DNA of 36,669 nt from Flavobacteriales bacterium (GCA_947488195.1 CANKYR010000011.1:1-36669); one strand, 5' to 3'; positions 31,102 through 36,119 are shown, counted from the first letter of the stretch. Numbers and translations: made by a program. Notes: generated by a model not told the origin, from the letters alone.

Positions 31102-33765
31102 ATGATAACCCGAATTATTGGGATAAACACCAGCACCTATGTGAACGCTGAAATGCGTCTAGACGATTGCGATTCATTGCAGTTGGTAGGTCCTAACAAC
31201 GTTGGTAAGTCAACCCTTATATACACCTTGAACTTCTTGTTCATTGTAGATGGATCGAAGATGTCCTTTTCAGGACAGCGCCGTGGAGACAAAGAAACCA
31301 TTCATCACTACTTCCCTACTCACAACCAGAGCTACATCATTTTTGAAATCAAGAAGAACAATTCAAGCTATTGTATTCTTGTCAAGCGCGACAGCGATGG
31401 CGAGTTGGAATACTTCCGTTTTTCTGGAGAATACAATGCCGAAAACTTCTTCAAAAAAGAAGGCGCACACCAGCGTATTCGCAAATGGGACGAAGTTCAA
31501 GATGAACTAAAAACTGCTGGCGTTGAATTGTATCTCTTCAAGAGCAAAACTGAAGTATTCAATACGGTATACTCTAGAGGAAGAAAGAACGACGCTGCTA
31601 TTTGGCTGGAAGACAGTGTTCGCACAGACGGACTTTCAAACAACTTCTCGAAGGTTTATCGCTACTTGATTAACTCGAAGTTAATCACGAACAAGACCCT
31701 AAAAGAAAGCTTAATTGTTGCGGATAACCGCGAGAACGAAGGCTTAAGCTTTTCACAGAAAAACAAAAAAGACATCAACGATTTACTTCGTATCAACGAA
31801 GAAATTCGCACAGTAAAAAGCATTCAAAAAGAGTTCGAAGAATTCCGTGAAGTGGTGAATTTGTTCAAAGCAAAAACACGAATCGTTAGCGATTTGGTTT
31901 ATGCCTTCGATAAACAATACAACGGGGTAATCAACGAACTCGACAGTTCTCGTTTAGAAAAGGAGAAGCAATATCAAACTACGCTTCTCAACCTGAATGA
32001 AAAACTAAAACCGAAGCAAGAAGAGTTAAATCGTGAATTGGGTAAGCGCGAATTGGAGGTTGAAATTCAAGAAAAAAAATTCATCAATCTTCAAACACAA
32101 TTAGATGAAATAACTTCTTTCGAAGGAAAGAAATTCTTGGAAGAATCTCTTTTGAATTTAGATGCTAAACGTCGCGAATCAGAGGTGCGCATTACCATGG
32201 TTGAGAATCAAAAATTAGATTCGAAAAACTTGGAGGCGAAGCTTCAGAAGATTGATGTGACTTGCGGAAAGCTTGAAGCACAAATTAAAAATTACGACGA
32301 CCAGTTGATTCACAAGATTACAGCGAAAGACGACATTCGCAAAATCTTGAACACCGTATTTTCTCAAGAATTCGCGGCACTTCCAAGTAAGTTGGTGAAG
32401 AAAAAAATTACCAAGGCTGGAACAACGTTAAGCATTTTCGATGGTGAAATTACACTTCCGAAAGACCTCGTTCTTGCTGACATTCCTTCAGTTAAGTCTT
32501 TGAAAGAAGAACTTCAAGAATTGAAAAGAGAAAAAGTTGAGTTAGAGAAACTATGGGCCGTTGCTCTAAATTTCGACAAGGCACAAAAAGAACTCGATAA
32601 GATTCATGCCGACATTGAAGAAGTGAAAGCGAAATTGAACAAGCTCAAGAATAAACCGAAACTTGAAAAAGAGGCTGACGCTGCAGGAAAAGAACTGCGC
32701 ACAATGAAGGCCGAAAAAGAAAAGTGTGAAGGTGATTTGAGCAAATTGAAAAAAGAGCTTTCCGACAAAACACTATTGCTCGATTCTCTGCGAGAAGAAA
32801 CACGCAGAAGTGAAGAGCGTATTATTGAATTGAAACGTCGCAAAGCAGAAATTGAAACCTTCGGAATTGTTCCAACAGAATTCGACACGACAGAATCTCT
32901 CGACGAAATTTACGGCAAGATAAAAATTTCGAACACCGATCGCGATACGTTGAAAGGCAACAAAGACCGGATGTTCGATCACTTGCGTTTCAAAACAAAT
33001 TCTGCAATGGCCGATGAAGAAGAATTCATCAAATATTTGGAAGATGAAATAGCGTGTATCAACGATAAAGTAAAAAGTATCGACGGTCTTTTGGGAAGTA
33101 TTTCAACGCAATTCGCTAACCCTGCTTTCACCTTGCGGAAGCGTTATGAAGAATTCAAAACATTCGTTTATAATCGCTTCAACGAGAGCTTGGCTAAAAC
33201 CAGAATCTCAAACATTGAATCGCTTCGTATTGAACTTGTAGACAACAAACGTGTATTGTTCGATTTGGAAAGAATCGCTTCTATCGAAAACTTGAACTCT
33301 CAACTCGCGTTTGAATTCGAACAAGGTGAAGATTTGAAAATTCTGAATCAATACTTAGACGCCGGGAAAACCATTGAATTCGAAGATCTATTCGATATAG
33401 AACTTCATCTCGATGTGAAAGGAAAGTTGAAGCGGGTGGACTTGAAAGAACAAGTGGAATCCGACGGAACAGACCGCATGATTCGTTTAGTCATTGTCAT
33501 GGCTATTATTAATCGTTTGGCGATCTCTACGCCAGAAAACAAAATTGCCCTCTTTATTGACGAGATTGGAACCATTGACGAACACAACCGTCCACAATTG
33601 GTTCAGTTCTGCAAAGAGCACAACTTCTTGCCAATCTTCGCTGCACCGCAGCCATATGATGGATTCTCGAAGTACTACTTCATCTTCCGCTCAAAAGGAA
33701 AAATTAATTTGAACGACAAGCAGCACGCTGTGCGTCGTGAAGACCTAAAAATATCAGAAAACTAA
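31102..33765 (+). CDS. Short SMC-like condensin ATPase, MksB/JetC-like
   Basis: The 887-residue protein has the SMC/MukB layout: an N-terminal ATPase half with Walker A GPNNVGKST (30-38), two long coiled-coil arms (about 205-410 and 465-690) interrupted by a non-coil segment (about 415-463) that may be the hinge, and a C-terminal ATPase half with Walker B IALFIDEIG (Asp820, Glu821). The usual LSGGQ-like signature is not evident; the aligned place reads ESDGTDRMIRL (786-795). MksB and JetC proteins are usually longer. The downstream MksF-like and MksE-like genes support assignment as the motor of a non-canonical condensin that extrudes DNA loops. No JetD nuclease is adjacent. The last base of its stop overlaps the start of a 35-residue ORF. 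Confidence 0.8.
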   Translation: MITRIIGINTSTYVNAEMRLDDCDSLQLVGPNNVGKSTLIYTLNFLFIVDGSKMSFSGQRRGDKETIHHYFPTHNQSYIIFEIKKNNSSYCILVKRDSDGELEYFRFSGEYNAENFFKKEGAHQRIRKWDEVQDELKTAGVELYLFKSKTEVFNTVYSRGRKNDAAIWLEDSVRTDGLSNNFSKVYRYLINSKLITNKTLKESLIVADNRENEGLSFSQKNKKDINDLLRINEEIRTVKSIQKEFEEFREVVNLFKAKTRIVSDLVYAFDKQYNGVINELDSSRLEKEKQYQTTLLNLNEKLKPKQEELNRELGKRELEVEIQEKKFINLQTQLDEITSFEGKKFLEESLLNLDAKRRESEVRITMVENQKLDSKNLEAKLQKIDVTCGKLEAQIKNYDDQLIHKITAKDDIRKILNTVFSQEFAALPSKLVKKKITKAGTTLSIFDGEITLPKDLVLADIPSVKSLKEELQELKREKVELEKLWAVALNFDKAQKELDKIHADIEEVKAKLNKLKNKPKLEKEADAAGKELRTMKAEKEKCEGDLSKLKKELSDKTLLLDSLREETRRSEERIIELKRRKAEIETFGIVPTEFDTTESLDEIYGKIKISNTDRDTLKGNKDRMFDHLRFKTNSAMADEEEFIKYLEDEIACINDKVKSIDGLLGSISTQFANPAFTLRKRYEEFKTFVYNRFNESLAKTRISNIESLRIELVDNKRVLFDLERIASIENLNSQLAFEFEQGEDLKILNQYLDAGKTIEFEDLFDIELHLDVKGKLKRVDLKEQVESDGTDRMIRLVIVMAIINRLAISTPENKIALFIDEIGTIDEHNRPQLVQFCKEHNFLPIFAAPQPYDGFSKYYFIFRSKGKINLNDKQHAVRREDLKISEN

Positions 33766-33872
33766 TGTCAACATTCCTAACTCCCCCAAACGGCGCAATT
33801 CTTTATCCTTCGAACATTCAAGACATTGAAGAAGTAAAAGTTTGCTACCATTTAGAATCAGAAGAAAAATGA
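33765..33872 (+). CDS. 35-residue ORF coupled between the SMC-like and MksF-like genes
   Basis: The ATG overlaps the SMC-like stop (TAATG) and its own stop overlaps the MksF-like start (ATGA), so both junctions fit translational coupling. The product begins MSTFLTPPNGAI and ends CYHLESEEK. It is acidic at the C-terminus, has one cysteine, and shows no membrane segment or signal peptide. It could be a small subunit, or only a short cistron that carries ribosomes to the next gene. It is too short for a family assignment. Confidence 0.5.
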   Translation: MSTFLTPPNGAILYPSNIQDIEEVKVCYHLESEEK

Positions 33873-35065
33873 TCAAAGCCGAACCACGGACCATATTAAA
33901 TTTCCTAAACACCTACTTCGATGTGGTGCGCGACTTGTTTGAATACCAGCAACAAGACGGGCTCATTACAAAGGAAGTATTCGATATGATATGTCACAAG
34001 CATGGCGCGCAAATGAAAAGTCGTTTGCGCGAATACCGCGTTGTTCGTTCAATTGGAAGTGATTTCGAAATGCGCGATGTGTATTTCAAGTTGATGGAAT
34101 TTTTGTTGTTTGAATTCAAACCGCTTCTTCCTGAAACCATTGAAAAATACAAAGGAGCCATTTCTGAATTGTTCATGAAGATTCGCAAAAGCGAACATTC
34201 TGATCGAGATATTCTTCAAGAAAGAATAAAAAATCTCTCCGGGCAAGTGCGAGAATTCGTCGATCTTGTTGAACGCAACGCTTTCAGATTACTGGCTGAA
34301 ACGCGCGATTTGAAATCGAACATCGACCGCGTACAATATCGCGAAAAGGTTCACAAGGCTTCCTTCTGGATTGAATACTACATTCTTCCACTGAATCGAA
34401 TTCTAGATGTAAATCACAGCGAATCGGTAACCAGCAAATTGGTTGAGGTATGCGAATACGCTAACCGCAAGCGTCTCGATTATTCAGATGAGACTACGCG
34501 AAGTGAATATGAAAAACTTTACACGCAGCTCATTCAAACCAACCAAGACTTGTTAAAGCAATCGAAGATTCTAACCAATGAATTGATTCCACTTCTTGAA
34601 CGCATTCGCACAGAATCTTTGATCCTAACTGGCTTTATAGAGTTCTTACGCAATCCGTATAAAGTAGAGACACCACCATTATTGAAAGGAACGCGCACAA
34701 TGGTTTACGCGAAAGACATGTACTTCAAAGTACGTGAATTCTTCGAGCAGTTTCAAATTGAAGCACCCGTTATTGTTGAAAATTCAGAAGCAGATTTCGA
34801 TAGATGGATTTTCGACAGAACATTATTCAAGGAAAAGCTTGCAGCAAGTATGCCCGTGAACGATTTCTTCGGATGGTGCTTCAAGGCATTGAAAAAAGAT
34901 TTCGATCAGATTGAAACGGATAAGTTCTTTGCGGTAACCGGATTGTTATTCGACGAAGAATTACAAATTGATTATTCAAAGAAAAGTGAACGCGTTTCCA
35001 TTGAGACTACAACATCACTGCTCAACGTGCCTAAATTAAAAATCGAACCCGCAATAAAATTATAA
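33869..35065 (+). CDS. MksF-like kleisin subunit of condensin-like complex
   Basis: I start this 398-residue protein at ATG 33869 (MIKAEPRTILNFLN), which overlaps the preceding stop. A longer frame from TTG 33842 would overlap the micro-ORF and adds no conserved sequence. The protein is almost wholly helical. The N-terminus (about 1-90) looks like a winged-helix dimerisation domain, the centre (about 110-265) is a helical bundle with long charged helices, and the C-terminus has a small domain. By gene order and size this is the MksF/JetA kleisin that links the two ATPase heads. Sequence similarity by eye is weak, so the call rests mainly on position between the SMC-like gene and the MksE-like gene. 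Confidence 0.65.
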   Translation: MIKAEPRTILNFLNTYFDVVRDLFEYQQQDGLITKEVFDMICHKHGAQMKSRLREYRVVRSIGSDFEMRDVYFKLMEFLLFEFKPLLPETIEKYKGAISELFMKIRKSEHSDRDILQERIKNLSGQVREFVDLVERNAFRLLAETRDLKSNIDRVQYREKVHKASFWIEYYILPLNRILDVNHSESVTSKLVEVCEYANRKRLDYSDETTRSEYEKLYTQLIQTNQDLLKQSKILTNELIPLLERIRTESLILTGFIEFLRNPYKVETPPLLKGTRTMVYAKDMYFKVREFFEQFQIEAPVIVENSEADFDRWIFDRTLFKEKLAASMPVNDFFGWCFKALKKDFDQIETDKFFAVTGLLFDEELQIDYSKKSERVSIETTTSLLNVPKLKIEPAIKL

Positions 35066-35066
35066 C

Positions 35067-35612
35067 ATGGTATATCCAGCGCACCATAGACAAATTGTTG
35101 AAGAACTCATGAGTGGTAAGTTCTTATTGAACAACGAGGAGCATTTCAATAGTTTGAAAGAAAACGAATCGTTTTACACCGAGTTTTTCAAAGTGTCATT
35201 CGACCTTGAATTGATCATGAAACCTGAATTCTCTTATCTCCTAAGCAAAGACACTCAGGAGAATTTCTCTCGCGATGTAAGTATTTTCATAGCCATTCTA
35301 AGCTATGAATTAGACCGCGACGGTCGCAATTTCATTGAATCCTTCGACTTCAACGAATTTACTTTCGAAGAGATTGACAACTATTTCCTAAATAGTTCTT
35401 TCGTGGATTTAATTGAAAGCAACAAGACCTTGCGCGATAATGAAAGTAGAAGAACATTGCTCAATGGTATGGCGCGTCGAAATATTATTTACAAAACTTT
35501 CGAAGACCGCTTTACCTTTACTCAAGCGTACAAAGTATTTATAGACTTCGCTAAAGAGCTTGCATTGAAACGCATTAAAGGCGAACCAGAAACACAAAAC
35601 ACTGAAAAATGA
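35067..35612 (+). CDS. MksE-like (KITE) condensin subunit
   Basis: The 181-residue protein resembles MksE/MukE/JetB winged-helix subunits. The markers are a start with IVEELMSGKFLL, then FDLELIMKPEFSYLLSK, the SRD-x(6)-AILSYELDRDGR stretch, and a second wing region ending in YKTFEDRFTFTQAYKVFIDF. KITE subunits bind the kleisin and DNA and regulate the ATPase. The start is 1 base after the MksF-like stop, and the stop overlaps the start of the next gene (ATGA). The acidic, polar C-terminal tail (EPETQNTEK) is typical of soluble subunits. Confidence 0.75.
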   Translation: MVYPAHHRQIVEELMSGKFLLNNEEHFNSLKENESFYTEFFKVSFDLELIMKPEFSYLLSKDTQENFSRDVSIFIAILSYELDRDGRNFIESFDFNEFTFEEIDNYFLNSSFVDLIESNKTLRDNESRRTLLNGMARRNIIYKTFEDRFTFTQAYKVFIDFAKELALKRIKGEPETQNTEK

Positions 35613-36067
35613 AAAAAACAATCCTTACACTTGCCTTCGCAGTAGCTTGCTTATTCAACAGCAGCCTAAATGCACAGTCACTTGAAAGTCGCGCTGCGGC
35701 AAATATTTGCGAATGCTCTCACATAATTGAAAACAATGTTAGCCCTGCATTTAGAGAAATCATCCGTTATAAATTAATTGCTGAAACACAACAGGATTTC
35801 GATAACGCAATGCTCACTTATGTGACGAATAATCCCGATCAAGCAGCTAAAGATATGCTGTGGATGCAAAGCATGAGTGACGATAACGGTCAGTTTTTGC
35901 GATGCATTTCGAAAATGGAAATGCAATACGACAACACAGAGCTAGACACTCCTGAGATGTATAATTCCATTATGGTAGAATTGTATGAAATCGAATGTGA
36001 TTTTGCAGCTGCACTCTTCCTGTTTGGAGCTGAGGTTCAAGAAGCCGAAGTTACTGAAGGCGAGTAA
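35609..36067 (+). CDS. Small exported protein of unknown function, end of the mks-like cluster
   Basis: The 152-residue product has a clear signal peptide (ILTLAFAVACLFNSSLNAQ). The mature part is helical and acidic, with four cysteines in NICECSHII, FLRCISKM and EIECDFA, and an acidic end (EVQEAEVTEGE). I do not recognise the family. The start codon overlaps the MksE-like stop (ATGA), so translation appears coupled even though the product is exported and the others are cytosolic. A terminator follows 20 bases after the stop, so this is the last gene of the transcript. Confidence 0.75.
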   Translation: MKKTILTLAFAVACLFNSSLNAQSLESRAAANICECSHIIENNVSPAFREIIRYKLIAETQQDFDNAMLTYVTNNPDQAAKDMLWMQSMSDDNGQFLRCISKMEMQYDNTELDTPEMYNSIMVELYEIECDFAAALFLFGAEVQEAEVTEGE

Positions 36068-36087: not shown

Positions 36088-36119
36088 AAAGCGCTGAATA
36101 TCAGCGCTTTTATTTTTTT
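36088..36119 (+). terminator. Intrinsic terminator of the mks-like cluster
   Basis: A perfect 10-bp stem (AAAGCGCTGA with TCAGCGCTTT, loop ATA) is followed by TATTTTTTT. It lies between the exported-protein gene and the promoter of the RNA helicase. Confidence 0.9.

What the first reader, a model, noticed from the sequence alone, without database searches (positions are those of the whole stretch)
31102..36067. MksBEF/Wadjet-like condensin cluster with a short ATPase and no visible JetD nuclease
Seen: an SMC-like ATPase (Walker A at 30-38, Walker B Asp820-Glu821), a helical protein and an MksE-like protein in one overlapped cluster. Known: MksBEF and JetABC are loop-extruding condensins, and Wadjet adds the JetD topoisomerase VI-like nuclease that cuts plasmids. 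Unusual here: the gene order is ATPase first, the ATPase is short (887 residues), its signature reads ESDGTDRMIRL instead of an LSGGQ-like motif, and the next gene downstream is an exported protein followed by an RNA helicase. Inference: a Bacteroidota-specific condensin branch, either for chromosome organisation or for plasmid exclusion with a nuclease encoded elsewhere.
Basis: partly seen in the sequence, partly recalled or inferred. Interest (0 to 1): 0.75.

Follow-up and report, generated by a model that had tools for sequence, protein, structure and literature searches.

The report
Nuclease-less chromosome condensin with hidden microprotein
A three-protein DNA-looping machine of the MksBEF (condensin) type, descended from plasmid-cutting Wadjet-like systems that lost their cutter, is nearly universal in some Bacteroidota families, a phylum whose chromosome organiser is largely unknown; in this lineage an unannotated 35-residue protein sits where the nuclease gene used to be.

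Summary
Window 31102-35612 encodes an SMC ATPase (MksB, 887 aa), a kleisin (MksF, 398 aa) and a KITE protein (MksE, 181 aa). Models of MksB and MksF match MukB/JetC and MukF/JetA; MksE hits Pfam MksE (1e-17). The "oddities" are family traits: ATPase-first order, ~885-residue ATPase and S-x-G-T signature recur in relatives.

JetD is absent from the genus, but not from the family. Seven sister loci are B-D-F-E, with a ~265 aa JetD-like Toprim nuclease between mksB and mksF. D is scattered on the tree (at least 6 changes), differs between relatives at one syntenic locus, and one locus keeps an internally deleted 54-codon remnant. So the cluster is best read as a nuclease-less derivative of a Wadjet-like system. 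D-less copies are near-universal in two Bacteroidota families (25/26 and 38/45 good genomes) and strongly constrained in the window genus (dN/dS ~0.02); ScpA is undetected in 40 relatives. Chromosome organisation is the likeliest role, but is inferred.

New: in every readable locus of the window's own family, the nuclease slot holds a conserved 33-48 aa microprotein (window 33765-33872), overlapping both neighbours here.

The parts
31102..33765 (+). mksB: SMC-type ATPase, 887 aa, head / about 200-residue coiled-coil arm / small hinge region / coiled coil / head
   Evidence: AlphaFold model (mean pLDDT 69) best matches MukB (9gm9_A E=1e-16) and JetC among 350,542 PDB chains; conserved in 18 relatives
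31189..31215 (+). Walker A GPNNVGKST (residues 30-38)
   Evidence: sequence; core residues invariant
33457..33489 (+). ABC signature variant ESDGTDRMIRL (residues 786-796); S and G positions kept in all distant relatives (S-x-G-T/S)
33553..33564 (+). Walker B end FIDE (D820-E821)
   Evidence: sequence; D820 and E821 invariant
33765..33872 (+). unannotated microprotein, 35 aa (MSTFLTPPNGAILYPSNIQDIEEVKVCYHLESEEK), in the slot where sister loci carry the JetD-like nuclease; start overlaps mksB stop (TAATG), stop overlaps mksF start (ATGA)
   Evidence: present in every readable locus of the window's family; a model built without the window's group finds it at E=2.8e-5 in 2.9 million six-frame residues
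33869..35065 (+). mksF: kleisin, 398 aa (N-terminal winged helix, helical middle, C-terminal winged-helix-like domain)
   Evidence: model (mean pLDDT 67); Foldseek top four are chain E of the JetABCD core 8q72 and three MukF chains; VIA top eight all MukF, Z 12.8-14.1
35067..35612 (+). mksE: KITE subunit, 181 aa
   Evidence: Pfam PF21980 MksE 9.9e-18; 18 of 18 aligned relatives match
35609..36067 (+). exported 152 aa protein overlapping the mksE stop; in the transcription unit in this genus only, not part of the conserved system
   Evidence: fast-evolving
36088..36110 (+). terminator-like hairpin (10-bp stem, T-run) that would end the transcription unit
   Evidence: consensus match only; total count near chance

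Best explanation
A nuclease-less MksBEF-type SMC complex. Two MksB ATPases are bridged by the kleisin MksF with MksE (KITE) dimers; ATP binding and hydrolysis at the heads drives DNA loop extrusion. It descends from a four-subunit Wadjet-like B-D-F-E system by loss of the JetD-like nuclease, so it can still extrude DNA but not cut it, and it serves as a resident condensin for chromosome folding and segregation. In the window's family the vacated slot holds a co-translated microprotein that probably binds or regulates the complex. Shown here: identities and predicted folds of the subunits, conservation of the trio, D-bearing sister loci, a D remnant, near-universal presence in two families, purifying selection on the trio in the window genus, conservation of the microprotein. 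Inferred: loop extrusion, the chromosomal role, the microprotein's function.
For: MksE Pfam hit; MksB model to MukB/JetC; MksF model to a JetABCD chain and MukF. Trio conserved with no constant fourth gene. JetD-like D between B and F in seven loci, with Toprim E and DxD and terminal EQ residues invariant and JetD matches to 4e-6 (Pfam) and 2.6e-7 (PADLOC) among the eight D proteins scanned. D presence needs at least 6 changes on the tree; D+ and D- species share one syntenic locus, L180 vs L178; L233 keeps a 54-codon internally deleted D, 58% identical over 52 aa to an intact D. No JetD_C in nine genus genomes. The trio is in 38/45 good genomes of f71 (48 junctions read, 3 with D) and 25/26 of f79. 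dN/dS 0.017-0.028 for B, F, E in the genus, like tadA. No ScpA in 40 relatives and no SMC above cut-off. Published precedent: P. [quoted passage not shown]
Against: Presence across genera of the window's own family is patchy (all 8 congeners but only 4 of 16 other family members), which also fits an accessory system. No sequence-profile link to MukB, JetC, MukF or JetA; identity rests on models of mean pLDDT 67-69. The 54-codon D remnant is one locus. D identities do not clearly follow B/F/E, so D could have been regained in places. No functional data. The SMC/ScpA census covers only the window's order.
Confidence: 0.66

Rival explanations
1. A plasmid-exclusion (Wadjet-like) defence system whose cutting step is done by an unrelated nuclease encoded elsewhere, or which acts without cutting (sequestering or silencing plasmids).
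For: D-bearing sister loci are Wadjet-like and partly accessory: one f79 genome (G683) carries both a D-less trio and a separate B-D-F-E locus; patchy presence among genera of the window's family; distant homologues on plasmids.
Against: No constant fourth gene near the trio; JetD not found in the genus; near-universal retention in two families and constraint like a housekeeping gene in the window genus; shared flanking gene block in a sister genus (L064).
Confidence: 0.18
2. An SMC-like DNA-repair complex (Rad50/RecN-like role) rather than a condensin.
For: The MksB model also matches Rad50 (7zr1) and Smc5/6.
Against: MukB and JetC rank first; partners are a kleisin and a KITE, which Rad50 and RecN lack; no CxxC zinc-hook motif seen in the MksB sequence (direct reading); no nuclease partner.
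Confidence: 0.06
3. The trio is a decaying remnant of Wadjet with no present function.
For: Nuclease lost; copies absent from many genera of the family.
Against: dN/dS about 0.02 for all three genes and intact ATPase motifs in the aligned relatives.
Confidence: 0.03

Closest known systems
MksBEF of Pseudomonas aeruginosa (nuclease-less)
   Same: SMC + kleisin + KITE, no nuclease; reviewed as contributing to chromosome organisation and as likely derived from JetABCD by JetD loss (PMC10586767)
   Different: Here order is B-F-E instead of F-E-B, sequences are too divergent for profile detection of the ATPase and kleisin, a microprotein sits between B and F, and nuclease-bearing sister loci and a remnant are visible
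Wadjet / MksBEFG (JetABCD)
   Same: Same SMC/kleisin/KITE architecture; sister loci carry a JetD-like Toprim nuclease; B-D-F-E is a circular permutation of the canonical F-E-B-D order
   Different: The window and most of the branch lack JetD; no JetA, JetB or JetC call in PADLOC or Pfam on the window proteins
MukBEF (Enterobacteria)
   Same: Best structural matches for MksB (9gm9, 7nyw) and MksF (3euh, 1t98, 7nz2)
   Different: MukB is far longer (chains up to 1467 residues, against 887), no Pfam MukB or MukF match, different phylum
SMC-ScpAB
   Same: General role proposed
   Different: No ScpA in 40 relatives; kleisin and KITE are MukF/MksE-like

Membership tests
MksBEF condensin | SMC ATPase with split head, coiled coil and ABC motifs | tested here: met
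MksBEF condensin | MukF/MksF-type kleisin encoded beside it | tested here: met
   (fold level; Foldseek E 1.6e-3 to 2e-2; MukF fills the top eight VIA rows, Z 12.8-14.1)
MksBEF condensin | MksE-type KITE subunit | tested here: met
   Pfam PF21980 above cut-off, 18/18 relatives
MksBEF condensin | DNA loop extrusion / chromosome organisation | not testable with these tools
   needs biochemistry or Hi-C
Wadjet (JetABCD / MksBEFG) | JetD/MksG nuclease in the operon | tested here: not met
   absent from the window operon; no JetD_C match in genus genomes; present in seven sister loci
Wadjet (JetABCD / MksBEFG) | plasmid restriction | not testable with these tools
   needs transformation or conjugation assays
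MukBEF | MukB/MukF sequence families (Pfam) | tested here: not met
   no such match at E<=1
SMC-ScpAB | ScpA kleisin in the genome | tested here: not met
   0 of 40 relatives; 9 of 14 control genomes ring
Rad50/Mre11 | CxxC zinc hook and Mre11 partner | tested here: not met
   no CxxC seen in the MksB sequence (direct reading); partners are kleisin and KITE

The most novel reading that the evidence does not exclude
The 33-48 residue microprotein that replaced the nuclease gene in the window's family is a dedicated fourth subunit of the complex (for example a beta-strand peptide that docks on MksB, MksF or MksE and regulates loading or ATPase), and the B-F-E complex is a resident chromosome condensin of several Bacteroidota families: a plasmid-defence machine converted, subunit by subunit, into a housekeeping condensin.
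Probability: 0.4. Interest if true: 0.78.

Novelty: new variant of a known kind. Interest (0 to 1): 0.64.

Why it matters
A Hi-C study found no homologue of any known condensin in its two Bacteroidetes and concluded that Bacteroides rely on unidentified SMC complexes (PMC10197239). Here is a concrete, near-universal candidate in several Bacteroidota families, easily missed because its ATPase and kleisin lie outside the existing profiles. The branch also shows the defence-to-housekeeping transition in progress: nuclease-bearing, nuclease-less and remnant-bearing versions exist side by side, even at one syntenic locus, which makes the proposed origin of MksBEF/MukBEF from Wadjet directly testable. 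The microprotein gives an immediate experimental handle.

Tried and rejected
Sequence-profile search of MksB, MksF and MksE against PDB sequences: only chance hits, so folds were used. PADLOC, NCBIfam: no informative hit on the window proteins. Viral contigs: none with a relative of MksB. Plasmids: only distant (under 33% identity) relatives on seven plasmids; in those I opened the order, where readable, is F-E-B-D. A 292 aa gene between mksB and mksF in L058 looked like a nuclease candidate; it is an inserted LigB-type dioxygenase on the other strand. The JetD_C hit in G017 (L128) lies in a genome where this trio was not found. The exported downstream protein was considered as a subunit and rejected: genus-only and fast-evolving. 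Recent horizontal transfer of the window copy: not favoured, since GC and third-position GC of mksB/F/E resemble neighbours and a sister genus shares the downstream gene block. No D remnant is detectable beyond chance in the gaps of the window's family, so descent of the microprotein from D is only a guess. MksE-positive Bacteroidota loci found by Pfam that I opened are mostly ordinary F-E-B-D loci.

Full report
WHAT IS THERE. The three ORFs are at the stated places. MksE matches Pfam MksE at 1e-17, as do all 18 aligned relatives. MksB and MksF have no informative sequence-profile match to solved structures, so structures were predicted from 18-row alignments. The MksB model has the SMC layout: N-terminal head, a coiled-coil arm (about 219-406), a small hinge region (about 407-463), a return arm (464-698), C-terminal head. 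Its best PDB matches are MukB (9gm9_A, E=1e-16), then JetC, Rad50 and Smc5/6. The MksF model starts with a winged helix and ends with a winged-helix-like domain; among 350,542 chains its top four Foldseek matches are chain E of the JetABCD core 8q72 and three MukF chains, and the eight best VIA matches are all MukF (Z 12.8-14.1). Both models are of middling confidence (mean pLDDT 69 and 67) and single E-values for MksF are weak; the case rests on the same answer coming from three adjacent genes.

THE UNUSUAL TRAITS ARE FAMILY TRAITS. In the relatives found by protein search and by kleisin profile, the order is B-F-E, MksB is mostly 878-943 aa, and the signature stays ESDGT in the 18 aligned close relatives; in distant relatives it is S-x-G-T or S-x-G-S. 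B-first is a circular permutation of the canonical F-E-B-D order with D removed. Apart from B, F and E no neighbour is constant: it is a three-gene system.

THE NUCLEASE. Nine genomes of the window's genus (G000-G008) have no JetD_C match, and this branch's own D protein has no match in the own genome or the genus members sampled. But seven loci elsewhere in Bacteroidota are B-D-F-E: L122, L086, L131, L180, L193, L197 and L229. D is 261-279 aa, with the Toprim E and DxD and terminal EQ residues conserved; JetD_C matches 6 of 8 D proteins scanned (the eighth being a plasmid homologue), best 4e-6, and PADLOC JetD models match to 2.6e-7. On a tree of B+F+E (quick method, long branches flagged) presence of D needs at least six changes. 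In family f71, L180 (D present) and L178 (D absent), both of genus g272, lie between the same upstream and downstream genes. L233 keeps, between mksB and mksF, a 54-codon ORF that is an internally deleted D (58% identical to an intact D over 52 aa, catalytic E and DxD gone), beside short repeats. That supports loss; regain in some lineages is not excluded, because D similarities do not clearly follow those of B, F and E.

DISTRIBUTION. In f79 it is in 30 of 36 (25 of 26). Of 48 f71 loci whose B-F junction I could read, 3 carry D; of the f79 family-wide copies none does. One f79 genome, G683, has a D-less trio and in addition a B-D-F-E locus closest to one from another family. In the window's family f1 (it includes a record labelled Crocinitomicaceae) all eight congeners carry the trio but only 4 of 16 other family members do. 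Within the genus dN/dS is 0.017-0.028 for B, F and E, about that of the neighbouring tadA and below that of the downstream exported protein. GC of the trio resembles that of its neighbours.

OTHER CONDENSINS. ScpA is undetected in 40 relatives while nine of 14 controls ring. No SMC match passes the cut-off; in the genus the head-domain fragments lie in 555-codon frames, the size of RecN (RecN is my reading). I could not extend this census to f71 and f79. A published Hi-C study reports no known condensin in two Bacteroidetes species (PMC10197239).

THE MICROPROTEIN. The mksB-mksF gap is 0-21 bp in most f71 and f79 loci, but 99 bp or more in f1. In the window the gap is an ORF: ATG overlaps the mksB stop (TAATG, 33765) and TGA overlaps the mksF start (ATGA, 33872), giving MSTFLTPPNGAILYPSNIQDIEEVKVCYHLESEEK. 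Every readable f1 locus has a 33-48 codon ORF just before mksF with the C-terminal motif EV(K/R)(V/L)K(Y/F)(H/N)L or close to it, even L058, where a dioxygenase gene has been inserted into the gap. Leave-one-group-out profiles recover held-out members at 2e-7 to 0.65 (window 2.8e-5) in 2.9 million six-frame residues, 11 of 13 below 0.01, and the motif occurs in 39 of 72,321 six-frame segments, all from f1 loci. Within the genus pN/pS is 0.061/0.212 in this frame, and changes favour third positions (11 of 19, p=0.024, not corrected for shared ancestry). The alternating pattern suggests a beta strand (inference). It sits exactly where D sits in sister loci. Whether it derives from D is not shown.

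MECHANISM. From knowledge of MukBEF and Wadjet: heads engage on ATP, the kleisin and KITE gate DNA, loops are extruded. Without JetD there is no cutting step, so the product is DNA compaction and segregation. The published precedent is P. [quoted passage not shown] I put the chromosome role at about two in three; plasmid exclusion without a nuclease is the main rival.

VERDICT. A new variant of a known kind: a nuclease-less, permuted MksBEF branch of Bacteroidota with visible evolutionary intermediates and an apparently unreported microprotein. No paper found in the held library describes it; subscription papers and preprints were not searched.

Noticed in passing
window 33765-33872 (+): Unannotated 35-codon ORF between mksB and mksF, conserved throughout the window's family; made part of the report.
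   Followed up: yes
L233 (G860) and L234 (G854), mksB-mksF gap: Gap holds an internally deleted JetD-like ORF of 54 codons (L233) and copies of a roughly 90-bp repeat with a palindromic core (AGCCGTTnGGCT..AGCCAACGGT); in L234 the repeats fill most of the gap.
   Followed up: partly
G683 (L183 and L197): One genome carries both the D-less B-F-E trio and a separate B-D-F-E locus most like one from another family: a natural pair for comparing condensin and defence versions.
   Followed up: partly
L058 12721-13599: A LigB-type dioxygenase gene inserted on the opposite strand between mksB and mksF, leaving the microprotein ORF intact next to mksF.
   Followed up: partly
L118-L127 (family f27, genus g76 and others): MksE-family loci with about 1130 aa ATPases in F-E-B-D order are common in one large genus of the phylum (most of the 42 MksE-positive genomes); probably standard Wadjet/MksBEFG.
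   Followed up: partly
window 35609-36067; L055 7489-7929; L056 5329-5769: Downstream exported proteins of one family (shared CEC motif) occur singly or as tandem pairs in the genus and evolve fast.
   Followed up: no
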